Shown here one piece after another: positions 17,371-29,770 of a stretch of DNA of 64,000 nt. A program made the position numbers and the translations under genes. The notes beneath the pieces were generated by a model. That model saw only the letters and a list, made by a program, of their open reading frames with translations, made no database searches and was not told the origin of the DNA. This DNA is from Cellulomonas cellasea. Its GTDB lineage: Bacteria; Actinomycetota; Actinomycetes; Actinomycetales; Cellulomonadaceae. The DNA lies in NCBI RefSeq assembly GCF_006538745.1, contig NZ_BJLR01000001.1:186001-250000 (forward strand). Direction: 5' to 3'. How positions within the stretch are numbered: the first letter of the stretch is position 1; every line of letters starts with the position of its first letter.

Positions 17371-17985
17371 TCAGTCCTTGAGCGTGAGCGTGCGCAGCGC
17401 GTCGTAGCCGGGCGAGGACAGGAGCTCGCCCTGCGGCGCCTCCGTCGACACGGCCACGAGGTACGTCTCGGCCTCGTTGTGCGTGGTCACGAGCAGCCCG
17501 TCGAGCGGCTCCGCACCCTCGAGCGTGATCGTGTACGTCGCGGCGACCGCGTACGGCACGGCCGACCAGGTCGCGGGGACCCGCTCGAGGTCGTCCACGA
17601 CCCCGCTCGCGCCGAGCTGGGCCGCGGCCGCGGCGGAGGCGGCGTCGACGGCGTCCGGGTTGGCGGGCTCCTGCGGCGTGACCGTGACGATCACCGCGGC
17701 GCGCGGCGCACCGGCCGCACGGAGCTGGATGCTCGTGCCCTCGCCGGCCGGCGTCGCGGACGCGGTCATGCCCTCGGGCACCGCGATGCTCAGCACGTCG
17801 TCGCTGTACGTCTCGCCGCCGCCGAGGTCGTCGAGCGCCTCGATCTCGAGCGCGTCGCCCTCGGGCGCGATCTCCGTGCGCCCGCTCTCGTCGTCGCCCG
17901 CCGGCTCCTCGCCCCGCGAGCACCCCGCGAGGGCGAGCGCCGCCCCGAGGCACACGACCGCTGCTGTCGTCCTCACACCGCGCAT
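17371..17985 (-). CDS. Secreted lipoprotein of the Tad locus
   Basis: A 204-residue lipoprotein: MRGVRTTAAVVCLGAALALAGC gives a lipobox LAGC with the modified Cys at 22, followed by an acidic linker (RGEEPAGDDESGR). The remaining 170 residues form a mixed alpha/beta domain with a pattern (YSDDVLSIAVPEGM...VIVTVTPQ...YLVAVSTEA) like small surface lipoproteins of the PsbP/LpqN type; this is a weak resemblance. The start overlaps the large pilin-like gene by 13 bp; an alternative ATG at 18003 would add six residues before the signal peptide. It probably sits on the outer face of the membrane and helps pilus assembly or stability; inferred from position only. Confidence 0.75.
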   Translation of the reverse strand: MRGVRTTAAVVCLGAALALAGCSRGEEPAGDDESGRTEIAPEGDALEIEALDDLGGGETYSDDVLSIAVPEGMTASATPAGEGTSIQLRAAGAPRAAVIVTVTPQEPANPDAVDAASAAAAAQLGASGVVDDLERVPATWSAVPYAVAATYTITLEGAEPLDGLLVTTHNEAETYLVAVSTEAPQGELLSSPGYDALRTLTLKD

Positions 17986-19376
17986 GCTGCCCACTCCTGC
18001 CATCCGTTCGCTCCGAGGTAGTACGCGCCCGTCGACTCCGAGGTCGCGGTCGAGGCGCCGAGGCTGAAGGACAGCCCACCGATCGCCGGGGCCTCGAGCC
18101 CGAGCGCCGCGTCGACGAGGTTCGACGAGTTCACGTCGAGGAACTGCGCCGTGACGTCCCCGTTCGCCGCAGCCTGCTGCATGATCATCGGGATCGCGAC
18201 GGCCGGGACCATCGAGGTGCCGCCCGGCGCGGCGGCGATCGCGCCGAGCCCGCCGAGCGCCGCCGTGACCTGCGCGCGGTTGGCGTCGGTGACCGGGACC
18301 GTCGCCTTGAGCTGCACGCCCTTGCCGCCGCCACCCTGGAGCGGGATGCCGGCGAGCGCCGTCAGCGAGCCGGCCCCCTCGGCGGTCGCGGCGCCGTCGA
18401 AGGACACCTCGGAGATCTGGTTGTTCTTGTCGAGCGTCGTCGCGACGACGAGCTCGATGCCCGCCGAGCCCTCGCCGCCCGCACCCCAGTTGCCGTCCGT
18501 CGCGGACAGGCCGAGCTGGGCGGCGGCCTCGCCGTCGAGCGTGATCTTGTTGTAGACGGTCGTGGTGCCCTTGTCGTGGTCGAACTTCACGCCGAGCGCG
18601 TTCGCGTAGTCGAGCGAGGCGTTGCCGCCGGCCACGATGGCGCCGGCCGACGCCGAGCCGTTGGCGCTGATCCCGCCCTCGTAGTACGACACGTTGGGCG
18701 CCGGAGGCTCGTAGTCGTACCCGGTCGCCTTGTTCCACAGCCAGTTCAGCACCTCGACCGAGGCGCCGCTGCCGGGGATGAGGGCGTTCGACACCGACTT
18801 GGCGCCCTCCTTCGCCACGGTGCGCTCGACCCAGTTCGTGAACTCGTCGGCCTCCTCCTTGCTGTCGAACGAGTACTCGACGCCCGCCCCGGCGAACACC
18901 CCGCCCGAGACCGAGGCCTCCGCGCCCAGCTCGCCGCCGTAGTCGCCGATCCGCAACGTGCCCTGCGCCTCGCCGGCGCTCAGGGACGCGTCCGCGCCGA
19001 GCTCGCCGCCGACCGTCACCTTGTACGTGCCGTCGCTCAGCCGCTCGACCGACATGTCGCCGCTCGACCCGAGCGAGATGAAGGAGATGCTGACGCCGCC
19101 CTCGATGTGCGTGTCGTCGGTCCGCACGGTGCACGGCTCGTCGGGGGGCAGGTCGTCCTGCGCGCCGGTGTCGCTGCCGCACGTCGTGCCGATCGCGGCG
19201 CAGAGCCGGGCCCCGATCTGGTTGCCCAGGGGCGTCGCGACCATGAGCAGCGAGCCGACGATCAGGGCGACGAACATCGTCGCGCCGAGGTACTCGAGCG
19301 AGCCGGCGCCGTCGTCGGGCGAGGCGGCCGCACGCCTCCAGAGCGAGGTCCGCGCGGTGCGGTGGGATCGGGACAT
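17973..19376 (-). CDS. Very large pilin-like protein
   Basis: A 467-residue protein starting MSRSHRTARTSLWRR with GGAGG upstream. Residues 20-47 copy the Flp pilin signal: DDG (G23) then AGSLEYLGATMFVALIVGSLLM (shown in two parts in its family as G|AGSLEY), with Glu28 at +5 of the predicted prepilin-peptidase site. Unlike Flp pilins, which have 50-75 residues, it continues with about 410 residues of Gly/Ala/Ser-rich, beta-type sequence (GGELGADASLSAGEAQG, GGNASLDYANALGVKFD) with two Cys pairs near the start and a final Cys. No known domain was recognised. It lies two genes after the Flp pilin, so a minor pilin or tip adhesin exported and assembled by the same machine is likely. Confidence 0.78.
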   Translation of the reverse strand: MSRSHRTARTSLWRRAAASPDDGAGSLEYLGATMFVALIVGSLLMVATPLGNQIGARLCAAIGTTCGSDTGAQDDLPPDEPCTVRTDDTHIEGGVSISFISLGSSGDMSVERLSDGTYKVTVGGELGADASLSAGEAQGTLRIGDYGGELGAEASVSGGVFAGAGVEYSFDSKEEADEFTNWVERTVAKEGAKSVSNALIPGSGASVEVLNWLWNKATGYDYEPPAPNVSYYEGGISANGSASAGAIVAGGNASLDYANALGVKFDHDKGTTTVYNKITLDGEAAAQLGLSATDGNWGAGGEGSAGIELVVATTLDKNNQISEVSFDGAATAEGAGSLTALAGIPLQGGGGKGVQLKATVPVTDANRAQVTAALGGLGAIAAAPGGTSMVPAVAIPMIMQQAAANGDVTAQFLDVNSSNLVDAALGLEAPAIGGLSFSLGASTATSESTGAYYLGANGWQEWAACAV

Positions 19377-19399: not shown

Positions 19400-20926
19400 T
19401 CAGGGAGAGGTGACGGGGACGTCGGTGAGGCGGAACCGCTCCGGGACGTCGAGGGTGACGGTGTCGCCGCCCGGGTCGGGCCACAGGACGGTCGCGGTGA
19501 CGGTGTCGCCCGGCGCCATGGGCGCGACGATCCACTCGTCGGCGACGACCGCGCGGACGTCCGGGCCGGGGACCGCGGACGGCGGTCGCACGTAGTCGAG
19601 CGGGTAGTACCGGCTCGCGGTGCCGAGCAGCGTCGCGTTGTGCGCGCCGCCGCCCATCGAGAAGGCGCTGAGGCCGCGCGCGGTGGCCCGGCCCTGCACG
19701 AAGTCGCCGAACAGGCCGGTCGGCTGACCGGTCCCGGTGCCGGTGCGCTCGACCTCGAGCGAGCCGACGAGGAACGGTCCGACGCGCTCGACCTGCGTCG
19801 CGCGGACCGCGAAGCCGGTGACGCCGGCGACCTCGACGGCCGAGCTGCCGGACGCGACCGGGCCGGTGGGCTCGGGCAGGGCGGCGCCCGTGCCGATCTC
19901 GACCGAGGTGCCCGGGGTCACGGCGGTGAAGCGGATCTCGACGCGGCGGTTCGCCGCGCGGGCCTCGGGGGTCGTGCCGGGGACGGCGGGCTCGCTCTCG
20001 CCGCGGCCCTCGGCGGTCACCGCGTACGCGGCGCCCAGCACGGGGGCCAGGCGGTCGACGACGGCCTGCGCGCGCCGGACCGACAGGTCCTGGTTGTACT
20101 CGGGGGACGCGACGTCGTCGGTGTGCCCGATGACCTGCACGCTGCCCTCGGCGGCCTTCGCCGCGATCTCGGTCGCCGCGGAGTCGACCACGGCCTGTGC
20201 CTGCGGTGTGAGGTCGGCCTGGTCGACGCCGAAGAGCACGTCGGACGCGAGCGAGACCGTGACCTCCTCCTGCGTGACGCGGGTCGACGAGGAGTCGTCG
20301 AACGCGACCGTGAAGGCGTCCATCGGCGCACCGGCGTAGGTGAGCTCGCCCTCGCGGCCGAGGTCCTGCGCGGTCACGGGGAGGTCCTCGCCGGCGTCGA
20401 GCCGCACGACCGGGACCTCGCGCACGAGTCCGAGGTAGGGGAAGAGCACCGCGACGGTCTCACCGGCGGGGGCCTGGTACAGGCCCTCGGAGGTCGCCGG
20501 GGTGCCCGGGGTGGCCTGCACGTAGTCGCGCGTCACGGCGGGCTGGCCCGCGGCGTCGGTCCCGGGCAGGAAGACCTCGCCCGTGCCGAGGTCGACGAGG
20601 CGCACGCCGTTCGGCCCGACCGGGCCGGTCGTGGTCTTGAGCACCTGGCCGGCGCTGAACGTCGACCCCGCGGGGGCGTCGGCGCCGAGGCGGTACTCGA
20701 CCTGCAGGAGCGCCACGTCGTCCTTGACCCGGACCGGCGCGACCTCGACCTCGACGGGGAGCGACAGGTACGTCGCCTCGGCGACGACCGCCTCGGGTCC
20801 CGCGTCCGCCGTGGCCTGCTGCGTCGGCCCGGTGCTCGCCGTCGGGTCCGGGTCCGGTGAACCCCCCGTGCACGCGGTGAGCAGCACGAGGACGGTGGCG
20901 GCCAGGCCGGCAGCGGTTCGGCGCAC
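19400..20926 (-). CDS. OmpA-domain lipoprotein of the Tad locus
   Basis: A 508-residue lipoprotein with signal peptide MRRTAAGLAATVLVLLTAC (lipid-modified Cys19), a Thr/Asp/Pro linker, an N-terminal beta-rich domain (about 50-250), an OmpA-like peptidoglycan-binding domain (about 265-370; DVLFGVDQADLTPQA, VIGHTDDVASPEYNQDLSVRRAQAV and EARAANRRVEIRF), and a C-terminal domain of about 130 residues. The OmpA domain binds peptidoglycan stems, so the protein could fix the pilus machine to the thick wall. It lies directly after the Flp pilin gene and its hairpin. OmpA domains are better known in Gram-negative outer membranes; their use here is notable. Confidence 0.85.
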   Translation of the reverse strand: MRRTAAGLAATVLVLLTACTGGSPDPDPTASTGPTQQATADAGPEAVVAEATYLSLPVEVEVAPVRVKDDVALLQVEYRLGADAPAGSTFSAGQVLKTTTGPVGPNGVRLVDLGTGEVFLPGTDAAGQPAVTRDYVQATPGTPATSEGLYQAPAGETVAVLFPYLGLVREVPVVRLDAGEDLPVTAQDLGREGELTYAGAPMDAFTVAFDDSSSTRVTQEEVTVSLASDVLFGVDQADLTPQAQAVVDSAATEIAAKAAEGSVQVIGHTDDVASPEYNQDLSVRRAQAVVDRLAPVLGAAYAVTAEGRGESEPAVPGTTPEARAANRRVEIRFTAVTPGTSVEIGTGAALPEPTGPVASGSSAVEVAGVTGFAVRATQVERVGPFLVGSLEVERTGTGTGQPTGLFGDFVQGRATARGLSAFSMGGGAHNATLLGTASRYYPLDYVRPPSAVPGPDVRAVVADEWIVAPMAPGDTVTATVLWPDPGGDTVTLDVPERFRLTDVPVTSP

Positions 20927-21362: not shown

Positions 21363-22001
21363 TCAGCGTGGGTCCCTGGGCCCACGCAGGCCCGCGTGCC
21401 ACAGGGCCATGGCCTGGGGGCGTGACGAGACGCCGAGCTTGGCGAAGATCGAGTTGATGTGGTTCTTGACCGTCTTCTCGCTCAGGAACAGGCGCACCGC
21501 GATCTGCCCGTTCGCGAGGCCCTCGGCGACGAGCTCCATGATCTCGGTCTCGCGCGGCGACAGGACGGTCTGCTCCTCGGTCGCCACGGCGCCCGTCGCG
21601 GGCGCGGCGAGGCGCTCCCACGGGGCCAGGCCGGCGGTGAACGTGCCGCCCAGCAGGCACGCCCGCAGCGCCGCGAGGATCCCCTCGGGCTCGAGCGAGC
21701 CGTGCAGGATGTAGCCGCTGGCCCCGAGCGTCATCGCGTCGGCCACGACGTCGAGGTCGTCGGTGTTCGTGAGCATCACGACCTTGCAGTGCTCGAGGAG
21801 CCGCGGCAGCGCCGTGAGGCCGTCCATGACCGGCATGCGCACGTCGAGCAGCGCGATGTCGGGCGCGAACGTCCCCGCGGCGTCGAGCGCGTCCTGGCCG
21901 TTGACGGCCTCCTGGACGGCGGCGACGCCGTCGAGCCCCTCGAGCGACGCCCGCAGCCCGAGCCGGATCAGCTTGTTGTCGTCGACGACGAGGATCCTCA
22001 T
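21363..22001 (-). CDS. NarL/LuxR-type response regulator within the Tad locus
   Basis: A 212-residue two-component regulator. The receiver domain (1-120) has MRILVVDDNKLIRLGLRASL with the acidic pair D7/D8, phosphoacceptor Asp53 region ALLDVRMPVMDG, and TNTDD. The C-terminal LuxR-type DNA-binding domain (about 145-205) reads LSPRETEIMELVAEGLANGQIAVRLFLSEKTVKNHINSIFAKLGV. The usual conserved Lys in the receiver is replaced (GYILHGSL). It overlaps the kinase gene upstream by ATGA and is followed by the flp promoter region. It probably controls pilin expression in cis. Confidence 0.92.
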   Translation of the reverse strand: MRILVVDDNKLIRLGLRASLEGLDGVAAVQEAVNGQDALDAAGTFAPDIALLDVRMPVMDGLTALPRLLEHCKVVMLTNTDDLDVVADAMTLGASGYILHGSLEPEGILAALRACLLGGTFTAGLAPWERLAAPATGAVATEEQTVLSPRETEIMELVAEGLANGQIAVRLFLSEKTVKNHINSIFAKLGVSSRPQAMALWHAGLRGPRDPR

Positions 22002-23212
22002 GCCGCTCCCGCCTTCTCGTGGTCGAACCGGACCGTGACCGTCGTGCCCTCACCGGGCGCGCCCGTGACGACGAGCTCCCCGCCGTGCAGCGCCGCGCGC
22101 TCGCGCATCCCGAGCAGCCCGAAGTGGCCGTCCACGGCGCCCTCCGGGGCCGACGTGGCGGCGGCCTCGCCGGGGCCGATGCCGCGGCCGTCGTCGGTGA
22201 CGACGAGGCGCACGCAGTCCTCCTCGAGCGCGACCCGCACGCTCACCCGCGTCGCGCCGGCGTGCTTGCGGACGTTCTCGAGCGCCTCGACGAGGATCGA
22301 GCGCAGGTCGTCGGCGAGCGCGGCGGACAGGTCGGCCACGTGGTCGTCGACGTCGACGTCGATCGCGACGCCGGCGCGCTCGGCCCACTGCCGGCACGTG
22401 GTCTCGAGCATGAGGTTCGGGGCGTCCGACGCGCGCCGGAGCTCCCCCAGGACGACGCGCGTGCCCCGGTGCGCCTCCTCGCACGCCTCGCTGAGCCGCT
22501 GCGCGAGCAGCAGGGTCTCCGCGGGGACGTCCGCGTCGGCGAGGCGACGGTTGAGGGCCTTCGTGAGCAGCACGATTCCGGCCAGGTCGCCCGCGACGGT
22601 GTCGTGCAGGTCGCGCGCGATCCGCACCCGTTCGAGCGTCGCGGCCTGCCCGGCCTGCACGAGCCGCAGCGAGCGCGCGGTGCGGGCCTGCGCGCGCAGC
22701 CCGTCACCGATGCGCGAGCCCGCCCAGGCCAGCACCGCGACGGCGGCCGCGGCCGCGAGCCCGACGGCCCAGTGCGGGCGCTGCGGGTCGGCGTTGACCG
22801 AGACGAGCACGAGCAGCGCGATCGGGGCCGCCATGACGAGCGCGAGGCTCAGCCCGACGGCCGCGCCGAACAGCGCGACGGTCGCCGCCGCGTAGACGAC
22901 GACGGGCTGGAAGTCCGGCATGACCGCGATGACGATCGCGGTGATCACGAGGTCCGCGGAGAGCAGGATCCCCGAGCGGCTCAGGTGCTCCCCGCGCCGC
23001 TCCCACGTGCGCGCCGGGACGTAGGAGAACGGCACGGCGAGCGCCGTGATGAGCAGCGCGCCGCCCGTGAGCCCGCCCGCGACGAACGCCGTGACCGCGC
23101 TGAGCGCGAGGACGGCCATCCGCAGGTGGCACAGGAGCCGGACGACGCTGCCGATGGCCTCGACCGCGGCCGCGGTCTCGCGGTCGACGGCGCGGACCTC
23201 AGAAGAGGCCAC
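21998..23212 (-). CDS. DesK/NarX-type sensor kinase within the Tad locus
   Basis: A 404-residue membrane histidine kinase. About six transmembrane helices lie between residues 25 and 165, then a coiled linker, the HisKA_3 segment RIARDLHDTVAGDLAGIVLL (His in RDLHD), and a HATPase_c domain with ILVEALENVRKHAGATRVSVRV (N-box), VTDDGRGIG (G1) and GHFGLLGMRERAALHGG (G2). There is no obvious extracytoplasmic sensing domain, so the signal is probably from the membrane. The GTG start lies inside the end of tadC (14-bp overlap) and its stop overlaps the regulator, making the pair part of the tad operon. Confidence 0.92.
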   Translation of the reverse strand: MASSEVRAVDRETAAAVEAIGSVVRLLCHLRMAVLALSAVTAFVAGGLTGGALLITALAVPFSYVPARTWERRGEHLSRSGILLSADLVITAIVIAVMPDFQPVVVYAAATVALFGAAVGLSLALVMAAPIALLVLVSVNADPQRPHWAVGLAAAAAVAVLAWAGSRIGDGLRAQARTARSLRLVQAGQAATLERVRIARDLHDTVAGDLAGIVLLTKALNRRLADADVPAETLLLAQRLSEACEEAHRGTRVVLGELRRASDAPNLMLETTCRQWAERAGVAIDVDVDDHVADLSAALADDLRSILVEALENVRKHAGATRVSVRVALEEDCVRLVVTDDGRGIGPGEAAATSAPEGAVDGHFGLLGMRERAALHGGELVVTGAPGEGTTVTVRFDHEKAGAA

Positions 23213-26296: not shown

Positions 26297-26689
26297 TCAG
26301 TCCCTCGGGAGCTCGGCGTCGCGGGCGACGGTGAAGGAGCTGGTCGTGATCCCGGGGATCACGATCGGCACGCGGACCTCGACGCGCACGCAGTCCCCGC
26401 CGCACGACGGGACCGCGGCCGCGCCGGTCGTGAGCGACTCGATCGGTGCCCAGCCCGGGAGCTGGCGGTCGACGGCGGTGCGCACGTCGCGGCCGAGCGA
26501 CGCGGCACGGGCCCCGTCGCGCGCGGCCTTCTCCGTCGCCGGGCCGACCTGCGTGATGTAGAGGCCTTGGACGCACACCGAGCCGACGACCGCGAGGATC
26601 GCGGCGGTGCCGATGAGCTCGACCGCCGCCGCACCGCGCTCCCTCGCGGGCCGCAGCCGGCGCACGCGGGCCCGCAGCGCGGCGCTCAC
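26297..26689 (-). CDS. TadE-like pseudopilin
   Basis: A 130-residue minor pilin-like protein. The N-terminus VSAALRARVRRLRPARERG ends in a prepilin-type site at G19 with AAAVELIGTAAILAVVGSV after it (Glu24 at +5), one transmembrane helix, then a small extracytoplasmic domain containing a Cys pair (PSCGGDCVRV). TadE and TadF pseudopilins are known to be processed by the Tad prepilin peptidase and are needed for pilus formation. GTG start in a GTGA overlap with the TadZ-TadE fusion gene. Confidence 0.85.
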   Translation of the reverse strand: MSAALRARVRRLRPARERGAAAVELIGTAAILAVVGSVCVQGLYITQVGPATEKAARDGARAASLGRDVRTAVDRQLPGWAPIESLTTGAAAVPSCGGDCVRVEVRVPIVIPGITTSSFTVARDAELPRD

Positions 26690-28272
26690 CGCGGTTCCCG
26701 GAAGACGGCCGCCGTCGCGTCGGACACGAGGCGCAGGCCCGGCACGATCGTCGGCGTGGTGATCGCGACCTGGACCTGGTCCGGGCCGACGCTGACCGAC
26801 GCGCGGCTGCGCCACGGGCCGCTGAGCTCGCCGAGCGCGTCCGCGCGTGCGGCGTCGACCGACGCCTGGTCGTAGGCCTCGGCGATCCCGATGGTGCGGG
26901 CGCCCTCCTGCGCGGCGTTGCGCGCGAGCAGGAACCCGGCGCCCCAGCCGAGGCACTGCGCGGCGACGAGGAACAGCAGCAGGCCGATCCCGAACGCGAC
27001 GGGCAGCTCGACGACGGACTGCCCGCTGTCGGAGCCCTTGCGCCCGCGACCGCGCCGGCCGCGCCGCTTCTCGGTGGGTGCGGCGACGCCGTCCGCCGGC
27101 CCGGCGGCGACGAGCTCGCCCTCGGACCCGCGCTCGACGGTGCCGCGCTCGAGCAGCGCCGCGACCTTGGCCGCCGCGGCGTGCGCGGGCGTCGAGGCCG
27201 ACAGGATCGACGCGGTGTTCATCGCGGACTCGAAGACCGAGCCGCCGTCGGGGATGACGAGCGACACCGGCGCGTCGACGATGCGGTTCGCGAGCGACTC
27301 CTGCACCTCGCTGCGGTTCGACCGGCGGTTCAGCACCACGTCGACCTCGGACGGGTTGCGGACCGCGAGGCGCTCCCACATCGCGATCGAGCGGCGCGCC
27401 GCACGCAGGGCCGGCAGGTCCGGCGTCGCGACGAGCAGCGCGACGTCGGCGTACTCCAGCACGAGCGCCGTCGCGTCGTCGAGGCGCGAGCCGACGTCGA
27501 TCACGGACACGTCGAACTGGTAGCGCAGCGCGTTGACGAGCGCGCGCGCCGCCTCGGCGGTCATCTCCTCGGCGCGCTCCCCCTCGTTCGGCGCGGGGAG
27601 CAGCCGCAGGCCGCCCTCGATGTCGTACGACGTCTCGCGCAGGACGCGCCCCGACATCTCGCTCGCGATGTCCACGAGGTCGACGACCGAGCGGCGCGTG
27701 TGCACCCCGGCGTACGCGGCGAGGTCGCCGGACTGCAGGTCGAAGTCGATGACCGAGACGGTGCGCGCGCCGGTCAGCCCCTGGGCCACGAGCAGCGCGA
27801 CCGTCGACGCGCCGACCCCGCCCTTGGCACCGGCGACGGCGACGACCCGGCCGCCGCGGCCCCCGCTGAGCTCGGACGAGACCGCGGTGCGCGCGGCGGC
27901 GGACCACTGCGCGACGGCCTCGAGGCGCGCGACGATCTCGGGCAGGCTCGACGACTCCGAGATGACGGACCGCGCCCCCGACTCCATCGCGGCGGCGAAC
28001 TGCTCGGGTCCGGCGCTCTCGACGAGCAGGACCACGCCGACCAGCGGGTTCGAGGCGCCGACGGCACGGGCGACGGCGTGGCCGCGGCCACCGTCGAGCC
28101 CCTCGTCGACGAGGACGACGTCGATGCCGGAGATGCGCGCGAGCGTGTCCTCGACGCCGTCGCCGTCGGCCGCGACGTGCGCGAGCCGGAGGTTCTCGGC
28201 CTCGGCCAGCATGTGGCCGACGCGCTGGCGGGTGCGCTCGCTCGCCGTGGCGAGCAGGATCTCGATGGCCAT
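26686..28272 (-). CDS. TadZ/CpaE ATPase fused to a TadE-like pseudopilin
   Basis: A 528-residue fusion. Residues 1-125 form a receiver-like domain without the phosphorylation pocket. Residues 140-375 form a ParA/MinD-type ATPase: AVAGAKGGVGAST (146-157; signature Lys150, the second P-loop Lys replaced by Ala155 as in other TadZ), VIDFDLQSGDLA and DVSVIDVGSRLD. A basic linker (KRRGRRGRGRKGSDSG, 402-417) leads to QSVVELPVAFGIGLLLFLVAAQ (418-439) and a 90-residue extracytoplasmic TadE-like tail. G417 followed by Glu422 at +5 is a typical prepilin-peptidase site, so cleavage could free the pseudopilin from the ATPase. TadZ and TadE are normally separate proteins. No stop or start codon lies in the linker that would suggest two genes. 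Confidence 0.88.
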   Translation of the reverse strand: MAIEILLATASERTRQRVGHMLAEAENLRLAHVAADGDGVEDTLARISGIDVVLVDEGLDGGRGHAVARAVGASNPLVGVVLLVESAGPEQFAAAMESGARSVISESSSLPEIVARLEAVAQWSAAARTAVSSELSGGRGGRVVAVAGAKGGVGASTVALLVAQGLTGARTVSVIDFDLQSGDLAAYAGVHTRRSVVDLVDIASEMSGRVLRETSYDIEGGLRLLPAPNEGERAEEMTAEAARALVNALRYQFDVSVIDVGSRLDDATALVLEYADVALLVATPDLPALRAARRSIAMWERLAVRNPSEVDVVLNRRSNRSEVQESLANRIVDAPVSLVIPDGGSVFESAMNTASILSASTPAHAAAAKVAALLERGTVERGSEGELVAAGPADGVAAPTEKRRGRRGRGRKGSDSGQSVVELPVAFGIGLLLFLVAAQCLGWGAGFLLARNAAQEGARTIGIAEAYDQASVDAARADALGELSGPWRSRASVSVGPDQVQVAITTPTIVPGLRLVSDATAAVFREPR

Positions 28273-28979
28273 CAGCCCTGCGCCCCCTGCCCGAGGAAGA
28301 CCTTGTCGGCCGGCGCGAGGTCCTGGTCGTCGCCGTCGCCGCGCAGCGCGAGGCGCAGCTTCACGGAGAAGCTCTCGATGTAGGCCAGACGCAGCGCGTC
28401 CGCCGACGTGAGCGCGAACGTCACGGGCACCCCCTGGGTCGACTCGAAGTTGCCGGAGGCGTCGGAGCCCTCGACGTCGGTCGGCAGGCCGACCTCGAGG
28501 ACGAGCGCGTTGGACACCCAGATCTCGGAGCGCGAGGGCGTCGTCTCGTCGCCCTCGACCGTCGCGATGATGTCGACGTGGTTGCCGGACGCGACCTTGC
28601 CCGCGACGCCGGTCTCGGCGTCGACGACGATCGCGACCTCGCGGTACCCGGGCTGGACGCCGGGCCGCGGCACGAGCATCCCCTCCTGGAGCGTCGAGCC
28701 CTCGGTGTAGGCGGTCGCGGCGACGAGGCCCACGACGTCGGTCGTGGAGCGCAGGGCGGTCTCGGGCACCCAGCGCTCGGGGACCTCGACCGTGGTGACC
28801 ATGTCCTCCTCGATCGGCTCGAGGGCGTCGACGTCGCGGGTGAACTGCACGACGGCGGTCATGGGGCCGACCTTCGAGCTGACGTCACCGAGGTAGACGA
28901 GCACCGCGAAGAACACGACGATCGCCCCGATCGAGGTGATCACGAGCAGCAGTGCGCCGCGGCGCTGGCGGGGGTTCAC
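28272..28979 (-). CDS. CpaB/RcpC-like Flp pilus assembly protein
   Basis: A 235-residue protein with one N-terminal helix (GALLLVITSIGAIVVFFAVLVYL) and a SAF-type domain (about 50-115; VVQFTRDVDALEPIEEDMVTTVEVP...GLVAATAYTEGSTLQEGMLV) followed by the RcpC-type beta region (VASGNHVDIIATVEG, FALTSADALRLAYIESFSVKLRLALRG). In Gram-negative bacteria CpaB/RcpC helps the pilus cross the wall; in Gram-positive relatives it is kept without the secretin. GTG start in a GTGA overlap with the preceding gene, and 1-bp overlap with the TadZ fusion. Confidence 0.85.
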   Translation of the reverse strand: MNPRQRRGALLLVITSIGAIVVFFAVLVYLGDVSSKVGPMTAVVQFTRDVDALEPIEEDMVTTVEVPERWVPETALRSTTDVVGLVAATAYTEGSTLQEGMLVPRPGVQPGYREVAIVVDAETGVAGKVASGNHVDIIATVEGDETTPSRSEIWVSNALVLEVGLPTDVEGSDASGNFESTQGVPVTFALTSADALRLAYIESFSVKLRLALRGDGDDQDLAPADKVFLGQGAQG

Positions 28980-29770
28980 GCGTGTCCTCCTGGGGTGAGG
29001 GCGGGGGTGGCGACGGCGCTGGTGGCGGGCGCGTCGAGCGGGAGCTGGCAGAACACGCAGCGCGCGCCGTGCCCGGGCCGCGTGCAGGACCGGCACGTGG
29101 GCAGGGTGCGCACGTGCGCCGGCGACGTGACCGTGGCGACGATGTCGTCGATCCACCCGTCGACCGCGGTGACCTCGACCCAGCGGGCGGAGCGCCAGGG
29201 CGCGGCGGCGAGGCCGGACGGCAGGTCGATGCGGTTCTCGGGGAGGGTCGACTCGTCGAAGCCGCGCCACGTCGTGGCCGAGCGCGCGACGGCGGCGATG
29301 CCGGTGAGGCCCGGGAGCTCGCGCGCGGGGGTCACGGTCCCGGCGGTGAGGTCGACGAGGAAGCGGGTCGACGGCCACAGGCTCGCGACGTGCTGGCCGA
29401 AGCTCGGCGTGGGCCGCTCGAGCTTGCCGACGGACGAGACGAGCGCGTACGTGCGCATCACCCGGGCCGAGGCGTCGACGACCGCGCCGACGAGACCGAG
29501 GTTCTCGTCCGCGAGGAGCTCGAGGCCCGCGGCGACGACGAAGACGGCGGTCGGCGGCAGGTCGAGGCGCAGCAGGCCGATGTCCTCGCGGCCGTACAGG
29601 AGCCGTGCGGCGCGCGCCTCGGCCCAGCCGACGGCGTCGACCGCGACGAGGACGACGGGCGCCTGAGGCGGCAGCTCGGCGACCGCGTCGACGAGCGCGC
29701 GGCGGTCGGGAGCGACAGCGCGCAGCCCGTCCGGCACGCTCGCGCGGTCGGCGATCACGATCACAGGCAC
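28976..29770 (-). CDS. Zinc-ribbon protein, first gene of the Tad operon
   Basis: A 264-residue soluble protein not matched to a named family. Residues 1-95 look like an alpha/beta domain (VPVIVIADRASVPDGL, APVVLVAVDAVGW), the middle part is mixed, and the C-terminus has a four-cysteine zinc ribbon CRSC-x8-CVFC (CRSCTRPGHGARCVFCQLPL). The GTG at 29770 was chosen because GGAGAGGA lies 7-9 bp upstream; an ATG at 29821 would add 17 residues without a ribosome site. The GTGA overlap with the cpaB-like gene shows it is part of the pilus operon. The zinc ribbon suggests a protein or nucleic acid contact, perhaps regulation; function unknown. Confidence 0.75.
   Translation of the reverse strand: MPVIVIADRASVPDGLRAVAPDRRALVDAVAELPPQAPVVLVAVDAVGWAEARAARLLYGREDIGLLRLDLPPTAVFVVAAGLELLADENLGLVGAVVDASARVMRTYALVSSVGKLERPTPSFGQHVASLWPSTRFLVDLTAGTVTPARELPGLTGIAAVARSATTWRGFDESTLPENRIDLPSGLAAAPWRSARWVEVTAVDGWIDDIVATVTSPAHVRTLPTCRSCTRPGHGARCVFCQLPLDAPATSAVATPALTPGGHA

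What the first reader, a model, noticed from the sequence alone, without database searches (positions are those of the whole stretch)
26686..28272. TadZ/CpaE ATPase fused to a TadE-like pseudopilin with an internal prepilin-peptidase-like site
Seen: one continuous 528-residue frame joins a cytoplasmic MinD-type TadZ ATPase to a membrane pseudopilin, with a basic linker and then G417 followed by QSVVE, Glu at +5. The Flp pilin (G31, QGAVE), the separate TadE (G19, AAAVE) and the giant pilin (G23, AGSLE) in the same locus carry the same site. Known: prepilin peptidases of Tad systems process TadE/TadF. Inferred: the protein may be a polyprotein that is cut into localisation ATPase and pseudopilin, coupling their amounts, or it may stay tethered and hold the ATPase at the pilus base. 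Either would be an undescribed way of positioning a pilus machine.
Basis: partly seen in the sequence, partly recalled or inferred. Interest (0 to 1): 0.8.

Follow-up and report, generated by a model that had tools for sequence, protein, structure and literature searches.

The report
Pilus-positioning ATPase fused to minor pilin
In many actinomycete bacteria one gene makes a pilus-positioning ATPase joined to a minor pilin, with an almost unchanging prepilin-peptidase cutting motif at the joint, which suggests a precursor that the pilin-maturing enzyme cuts into two working proteins.

Summary
Minus strand 26686-28272 is one 528-residue ORF: receiver-like domain, TadZ-type MinD ATPase, disordered basic linker, then a class III (prepilin) site SDSG|QSVVE and a TadE-like minor pilin. 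It is no sequencing error: whole fusions occur in two or more classes of Actinomycetota. Of 103 complete loci of this TadZ subfamily compared, 71 are fused and 32 keep tadZ and tadE adjacent but separate. In the fusions Gly at -1 never changes on the TadZ tree, while the other leader positions but -3 change 25-48 times; -3 is acidic in 69 of 71, as in separate TadE (32 of 32) and the next gene's product TadF (101 of 103). Selection for cleavage explains that best. This gene has no ATG, GTG or TTG in the 65 codons before the site. Best reading: a polyprotein that a prepilin peptidase cuts into TadZ and mature TadE. Cleavage is inferred, not shown; a PulL-like permanent tether remains possible. 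A prepilin peptidase gene is present but not diagnostic (71 of 71 fused, 39 of 40 control genomes). My searches of open-licence papers found no description.

The parts
26686..28272 (-). tadZ-tadE fusion gene, 528 codons plus stop
   Evidence: relatives over the whole length
27868..28272 (-). residues 1-135, receiver-like N-terminal domain of TadZ
   Evidence: PF00072 at 12-117, E 3.7e-5, below its cut-off; AF2 block means 91-98 for residues 1-130; the two-domain protein 3fkq is Foldseek rank 4
27142..27855 (-). residues 140-377, MinD/ParA-type ATPase domain with KGGVG motif (K150 invariant in A1 and A2)
   Evidence: Foldseek rank 1 is 3ea0, ParA family ATPase of Chlorobium tepidum, E 6.1e-14
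27022..27141 (-). residues 378-417, basic disordered linker that would be the near part of the leader, ending SDSG
   Evidence: AF2 pLDDT under 50 at 379-419; no ATG/GTG/TTG in frame between codons 351 and 510
27007..27030 (-). prepilin-peptidase-like site D415-S-G417|Q-S-V-V-E422
26689..27021 (-). residues 418-528, predicted mature TadE minor pilin: long N-terminal helix and small alpha/beta head
   Evidence: AF2 mean pLDDT 96.0; 39 of 48 members of A3 match PF07811 TadE, the window member itself does not
26297..26689 (-). second minor pilin (TadF/TadE2); its GTG overlaps the fusion's stop by 4 bases (GTGA); site G|AAAVE
28272..29000 (-). RcpC/CpaB (SAF domain), upstream gene whose stop shares one base with the fusion's ATG; true start not determined
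   Evidence: PF16976, 68 bits; TIGR03177, 98.6 bits
25005..26405 (-). TadA extension ATPase (stretch scanned; exact start not determined)
   Evidence: PF00437, 234.9 bits
24085..25008 (-). TadB platform protein (T2SSF; B/C naming by gene order)
   Evidence: PF00482
23199..24083 (-). TadC platform protein (T2SSF; B/C naming by gene order)
   Evidence: PF00482
20996..21217 (-). Flp major pilin, site G31|QGAVE

Best explanation
The gene encodes a natural polyprotein of a Tad (type IVc) pilus. The ribosome makes TadZ first, then the hydrophobic segment of TadE, which inserts in the membrane with its N-terminus in the cytoplasm, the ordinary topology of a prepilin. A prepilin peptidase of the A24 type (the only one found in this genome is PilD-like, on another contig beside a pilM-like gene; my reading of the ORFs) cuts on the cytoplasmic side after G417, freeing TadZ with a basic tail (1-417) and mature TadE (418-528). 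TadZ thus takes the place of a prepilin leader about 417 residues long. The arrangement makes the positioning ATPase and its minor pilin 1:1 and places TadZ at the membrane where TadE is inserted. Shown: the fusion, its conservation, the strict site, and, in this gene, no ATG, GTG or TTG near the joint; the disordered linker is a prediction. Inferred: cleavage, which enzyme does it, stoichiometry and placement.
For: Site conservation: an alignment made without any motif search gives G417 in 43 of 43 and E/D422 in 43 of 43 family members, D/E at -3 in 42 of 43; G417 is the only invariant column between residues 342 and 453 in the 41 rows of A2, the window protein plus 40 of the 52 named fusions. 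Wider set: Gly at -1 in 71 of 71 fused and 32 of 32 split, E/D at +5 likewise. Leader side: D/E at -3 in 69 of 71 fused, 32 of 32 split and 101 of 103 TadF, against at most 17% acidic at the other positions from -13 to -2 of fused TadE. On the TadZ tree there are 0 changes at -1 and 2 acidic/non-acidic changes at -3, against 25-48 residue changes at each other position from -15 to -2. Linker 379-419 is predicted disordered with the site at its edge. No ATG/GTG/TTG in frame from codon 352 to 417 in this gene; 18 of 71 fused genes have none between -60 and -3, and Shine-Dalgarno energies of linker ATG/GTG codons are near those of ATG/GTG codons inside TadZ (medians -3.4 and -3.0; real TadZ starts -7.95). 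In split loci candidate tadE starts overlap the tadZ stop (19 of 32) or lie within 25 bases of it (7 more), with leaders mostly of 6-24 residues. An A24 peptidase is present in 71 of 71 fused genomes, in 15 of them within 15 kb of a fusion gene.
Against: No cleavage data exist. The A24 peptidase is not discriminating: 39 of 40 control genomes without this TadZ have a match too (37 of 40 over the family's cut-off), and in the window's genome it lies on another contig. One of the 15 near-locus peptidases (G070) lies beside a second, frameshifted fusion copy. The regex demanded G or A at -1 and E or D at +5, so only -3 and the alignments are free of that bias. One of 52 named fusions (L186, a MAG) keeps Gly at -1 but has Gly at +5. 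In the 5 fusions of other classes, -3 is E in two and Q in three. In one genus (g15: L024, L026-L028) and in L066 the linker holds a GTG with a strong Shine-Dalgarno-like stretch, and the strongest 5% of linker codons are stronger than those inside TadZ (-10.2 against -7.4). Rare start codons (ATC356, CTG357, CTG373) do lie before the site in the window gene. Recalled, not from a call: TadG-like proteins keep a similar Gly without being known substrates.
Confidence: 0.66

Rival explanations
1. The protein stays whole: TadE's hydrophobic helix is a permanent membrane anchor that holds TadZ at the pilus base, as PulL (a PilM-PilN fusion) ties a cytoplasmic domain to a membrane segment in type II secretion.
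For: Topology fits without cleavage; PMC10191384 (passages) describes PulL as such a fusion; some standalone TadZs end in basic, partly hydrophobic tails that could be membrane tethers which an anchor would replace.
Against: A tether needs neither Gly at -1 nor an acidic residue at -3, yet both are held as in separate TadE and TadF. In 32 of 103 loci the two are encoded as separate chains.
Confidence: 0.13
2. Cleavage is partial or timed: the uncut form anchors TadZ at the nascent site, and maturation of TadE releases TadZ as a checkpoint of assembly.
For: Compatible with all sequence evidence, including both the site and the variable basic linker.
Against: Nothing in the sequence asks for partial cleavage; the stretch from the end of the TadZ model to Gly varies from 21 to 247 residues, which argues against a precise regulatory role.
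Confidence: 0.15
3. TadE is also made alone from an internal start, and the fused form is incidental.
For: 53 of 71 fused genes have an in-frame ATG, GTG or TTG between -60 and -3, a few with good Shine-Dalgarno energy (L024, L026-L028, L066).
Against: The window gene has no ATG, GTG or TTG after codon 351 before the site; 18 of 71 fused genes have none between -60 and -3, and positions differ from gene to gene.
Confidence: 0.04
4. Sequencing or annotation artefact (a missed stop or frameshift between two genes).
For: In 6 of 32 split loci tadE lies in the same frame as tadZ, so few base changes could separate the states.
Against: Fused over the whole length in many genomes of two or more classes.
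Confidence: 0.02

Closest known systems
TadZ/CpaE (Tad pilus positioning ATPase; solved 3fkq of Eubacterium rectale)
   Same: Receiver-like plus MinD-type ATPase domains; 3fkq is Foldseek rank 4 and the ParA-family ATPase 3ea0 rank 1; lies in a tad locus.
   Different: Standalone TadZ ends after the ATPase; here a linker and a pilin follow.
TadE/TadF minor pilins (PF07811)
   Same: Class III site G|xxxxE, N-terminal helix, small alpha/beta head; 39 of 48 members of A3 match PF07811.
   Different: In split relatives the leader is mostly 6-24 residues; here the whole of TadZ stands before the site. The window's own part does not match PF07811.
Ssd / CpaE_hom_Actino (TIGR03815)
   Same: Actinobacterial CpaE homologue model; all 41 members of A2 match it at E <= 0.01.
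   Different: The window protein scores 63 bits against a cut-off of 154.45; in the M. tuberculosis cluster tadZ and tadE are listed as separate genes (PMC9531140, passages).
PulL (PilM-PilN fusion, type II secretion) and fused PilM-PilN of Clostridioides difficile
   Same: A cytoplasmic assembly protein fused in line to a membrane partner of the same machine (PMC10191384, PMC6916266; passages).
   Different: Unrelated proteins (recalled), and no prepilin site is mentioned for them in the passages seen.

Membership tests
TadZ/CpaE | N-terminal receiver-like domain plus MinD/ParA-type ATPase | tested here: met
   (the receiver match is below Pfam's cut-off)
TadZ/CpaE | Encoded in a tad locus with TadA, TadB, TadC and Flp | tested here: met
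TadZ/CpaE | Localises to the pole or pilus site | not testable with these tools
   needs microscopy
Ssd, TIGR03815 equivalog | Score above the curated cut-off | tested here: not met
   63 against 154.45 bits
TadE-like, PF07811 | Match of the window's own sequence to the profile | tested here: not met
   no match at E <= 0.1 for the window part
TadE-like, PF07811 | Homologous to sequences that match the profile | tested here: met
   39 of 48 members of A3 match, best E 7.5e-9
TadE-like, PF07811 | Class III site with Gly at -1, Glu at +5 and a hydrophobic stretch | tested here: met
Substrates of A24 prepilin peptidases | Site of the right kind and an A24 peptidase in the genome | tested here: met
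   the peptidase is nearly as common in control genomes
Substrates of A24 prepilin peptidases | Cleavage after Gly | not testable with these tools
   needs immunoblot or N-terminal sequencing
PulL-like permanent tether | No upkeep of a cleavage motif at the joint | tested here: not met
   this lowers the tether reading but does not exclude it

The most novel reading that the evidence does not exclude
A prepilin peptidase acts as the processing protease of a cellular polyprotein, and its cut is a switch: uncut TadZ-TadE marks and nucleates the pilus site at the membrane, and maturation of the minor pilin frees the MinD-type ATPase, so that positioning and pilus initiation are one chemical step. 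More generally, the cytoplasmic cut of class III signals would let any gene fuse upstream of a pilin gene at little cost, a route to polyproteins in bacteria.
Probability: 0.22. Interest if true: 0.82.

Novelty: new variant of a known kind. Interest (0 to 1): 0.62.

Why it matters
[quoted passage not shown] A widespread covalent link between TadZ and the minor pilin TadE is genetic evidence for a TadZ-TadE partnership, and it occurs in genera that are grown in laboratories (Streptomyces, Thermobifida, Cellulomonas), which makes it testable. If cut, it would be a prepilin with a leader of about 417 residues made of a working enzyme; I found no report of one in searches.

Tried and rejected
Sequencing artefact: rejected. 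Internal translation start: rejected for this gene as far as ATG, GTG and TTG go, not excluded in every relative. Presence of an A24 peptidase as support: tested and found not discriminating (71 of 71 against 39 of 40). Structure search for the TadE part: confident model (pLDDT 96.0) but no PDB match at E <= 0.001 (best E 0.17), so its fold gives no independent support. Sequence search of the TadE part against PDB: no convincing hit. Plasmid copies: none at 1e-20 in that collection. ORFs with two stretches matching my TadE model: none among the loci scanned. One search read minus-strand loci on the wrong strand; one search put that right.

Literature: searches (PubMed Central open-licence papers only; of the longer lists 10 of 20 were shown and 12 of 34) show no title or abstract start on a TadZ-TadE fusion. 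Passages shown of PMC4322843, PMC3244431, PMC6916266, PMC10191384, PMC6668835, PMC10499894, PMC11300603 and PMC9531140 (in PMC4322843, PMC10191384 and PMC6668835 only 12 of the places found were shown) mention none; PMC4322843 does mention a TadB-TadC fusion. No paper was read whole. Subscription papers and preprints were not searchable.

Rows dropped before the 71/32 count: second copies of loci fetched twice (L007, L051, L053, L054, L087, L091, L102), genes cut by contig ends or runs of N (L033, L042, L069) and the frameshifted second copy of G070 (L049); loci with TadZ-model scores under 240 (L052, L071-L083), a more distant TadZ type with no TadE part, were not counted. The weaker matches (E above about 1e-39) were not fetched unless already held, so the 103 loci are the stronger matches. 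Alignment A2 holds 40 of the 52 named fusions (L186 is among the 12 left out). Alignment A3 mixes fused and separate TadE parts, and its row L199 lies downstream of that locus's fusion ORF.

Full report
What is there. The finding lies on the minus strand. ATG at 28272 to the stop at 26688-26686 gives 528 residues without interruption. In the AF2 model residues 1-135 form a receiver-like domain, 140-377 a MinD/ParA-type ATPase, 379-419 is predicted disordered, and 416-463 is one long helix followed by a small alpha/beta head (mean pLDDT 89.1, pTM 0.57). The ATPase part is TadZ-like: the best structural matches in the PDB are 3ea0 (ParA family ATPase of Chlorobium tepidum) and MinD of Pyrococcus furiosus, with 3fkq at rank 4, which PMC10499894 uses as TadZ and whose reference list names Eubacterium rectale TadZ (passages). 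The C-terminal part is TadE-like: the window's own copy escapes Pfam, but 39 of the 48 members of A3 match PF07811. The joint carries SDSG|QSVVE, a class III signal; of 7 such sites found by one regex in all six frames of the window, 4 belong to the tad locus.

Surroundings. The locus runs on the minus strand: RcpC/CpaB, the fusion, a second TadE/F, TadA, two T2SSF platform proteins (TadB, TadC), a HisKA_3 histidine kinase and a LuxR-type response regulator, Flp, an OmpA-domain protein and a large protein with a Flp-like N-terminus. The fusion's ATG shares one base with the stop of the RcpC frame and its stop overlaps the next gene's GTG by four bases (GTGA), so these genes are tightly packed. 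The one match to Peptidase_A24 in the genome lies elsewhere, on contig C25; its ORF has the two CxxC pairs of PilD and a pilM-like neighbour (my reading).

Distribution. In the genus 5 of 7 genomes have a match, in the family 46 of 200, 39 of them with one match that runs to residue 511 or beyond. Fusions also occur in other families of the order, in other orders of the class and in 5 genomes of other classes of the phylum. In named genomes 52 of the 80 best loci are fused, among them Cellulomonas humilata, Promicromonospora citrea, Isoptericola chiayiensis, Thermobifida fusca, Nocardiopsis suaedae, many Streptomyces and Solirubrobacter soli. The 80 are the best hits to the fusion profile, so this is no estimate of frequency. 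After dropping second copies and broken or cut genes, 103 complete loci of this TadZ subfamily were compared: 71 fused, 32 with separate adjacent genes. For each of the 103 a further TadE/F-like ORF with a class III site was found just downstream. A quick tree of the TadZ part needs at least 7 changes of the fused label, of which well supported branches force 4; the deepest branches of the subfamily are fused, so fusion is probably old and was split more than once, perhaps joined again in the Streptomyces-like family (midpoint root, quick method, several long branches).

The site. A plain alignment of 43 family members shows Gly at 417 in all, Glu or Asp at 422 in all, and an acidic residue at 415 in 42. 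In the 41 rows of A2 (the window protein and 40 of 52 named fusions) G417 is the only invariant column between 342 and 453. In the wider set the leader-side signature is alike in fused TadE (acidic -3 in 69 of 71), separate TadE (32 of 32) and TadF (101 of 103), all with Gly at -1. On the tree the -1 position never changes and -3 leaves or enters the acidic class twice (15 residue changes, nearly all between Asp and Glu), while each other position from -15 to -2 changes 25 to 48 times. The regex used to place sites required G or A at -1 and E or D at +5, so the independent evidence is the -3 position and the plain alignments. One of 52 named fusions (L186) lacks Glu at +5, and in the 5 fusions of other classes -3 is E in two and Q in three.

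No ordinary internal start. In the window gene the last in-frame ATG, GTG or TTG before the site is ATG351, inside TadZ; rarer start codons lie at 356, 357 and 373. In 18 of 71 fused genes no ATG, GTG or TTG lies between -60 and -3; over all fused linkers the median Shine-Dalgarno energy of ATG/GTG codons (-3.4) is near that of such codons inside TadZ (-3.0) and weaker than that of real TadZ starts (-7.95), but the strongest 5% are stronger than inside TadZ (-10.2 against -7.4), owing at least in part to L024, L026-L028 and L066. In split loci a candidate tadE start overlaps the tadZ stop in 19 of 32 and lies within 25 bases of it in 7 more, with leaders mostly of 6-24 residues; three (L096, L109, L116) had no candidate by my rule and L099 only a TTG 250 bases on.

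How it most likely works. [quoted passage not shown] The fusion presents that substrate with a flexible, mostly basic arm, so cutting needs no new enzyme; it would free TadZ and mature TadE in equal number. Many split relatives could reach near-equal synthesis by overlapping genes, which would make fusion close to neutral as long as the site is kept, and that agrees with the tree and the site. The alternative, a permanent anchor like PulL, explains the fusion but not the upkeep of the leader-side motif. An A24 peptidase is present in 71 of 71 fused genomes and within 15 kb of a fusion gene in 15, one of these beside a frameshifted second copy (the script listed 72 genomes because a split one, G534, was included by mistake; it is not among the 15), but 39 of 40 control genomes have one too, so this is necessary and not diagnostic.

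Verdict. It is a new variant of a known kind, a Tad pilus locus whose positioning ATPase and first minor pilin are one precursor. Cleavage is well supported by comparison and untested by experiment.

Noticed in passing
window 17973-19376, minus strand: A 467-residue protein with a Flp-like class III site (DDG|AGSLEY) and a large C-terminal part that would lie outside the membrane, next to the OmpA-domain gene 19400-20926; perhaps a pilus-tip or adhesin subunit (guess).
   Followed up: partly
window 21363-23212, minus strand: A histidine kinase (HisKA_3) and LuxR-type response regulator sit between the platform genes and flp, suggesting dedicated control of the pilus.
   Followed up: no
L130, L107, L113, L105, L097 and similar split loci; L071-L073: Separate TadZ proteins of the Streptomyces-like family often end in a basic tail with hydrophobic residues, such as FRRRKE; the more distant TadZs L071-L073 end RRGFFRRRP plus one residue. 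These look like possible MinD-type membrane-targeting tails; most split TadZs of family f35 lack them.
   Followed up: no
L049 (genome G070): A second copy of the fusion gene lies in two overlapping frames (apparent frameshift), with an A24 peptidase about 2 kb away; an intact copy exists elsewhere in that genome (L046).
   Followed up: no
L058, L059 (family f8) and Quadrisphaera L160: In L058 and L059 TadZ is not fused but carries a long proline-rich tail, followed by a separate TadE whose start overlaps the TadZ stop; L160 was also classed as not fused.
   Followed up: partly
G000:C25 near 134000 (L055): The genome's only Peptidase_A24 match is PilD-like and beside a pilM-like gene, so one enzyme may serve two different pilus systems.
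   Followed up: partly
TadE and TadF sites of 103 loci: An acidic residue at -3 before the cut Gly is nearly universal in TadE and TadF sites of these loci, a possible specificity mark of actinobacterial Tad prepilin processing.
   Followed up: yes
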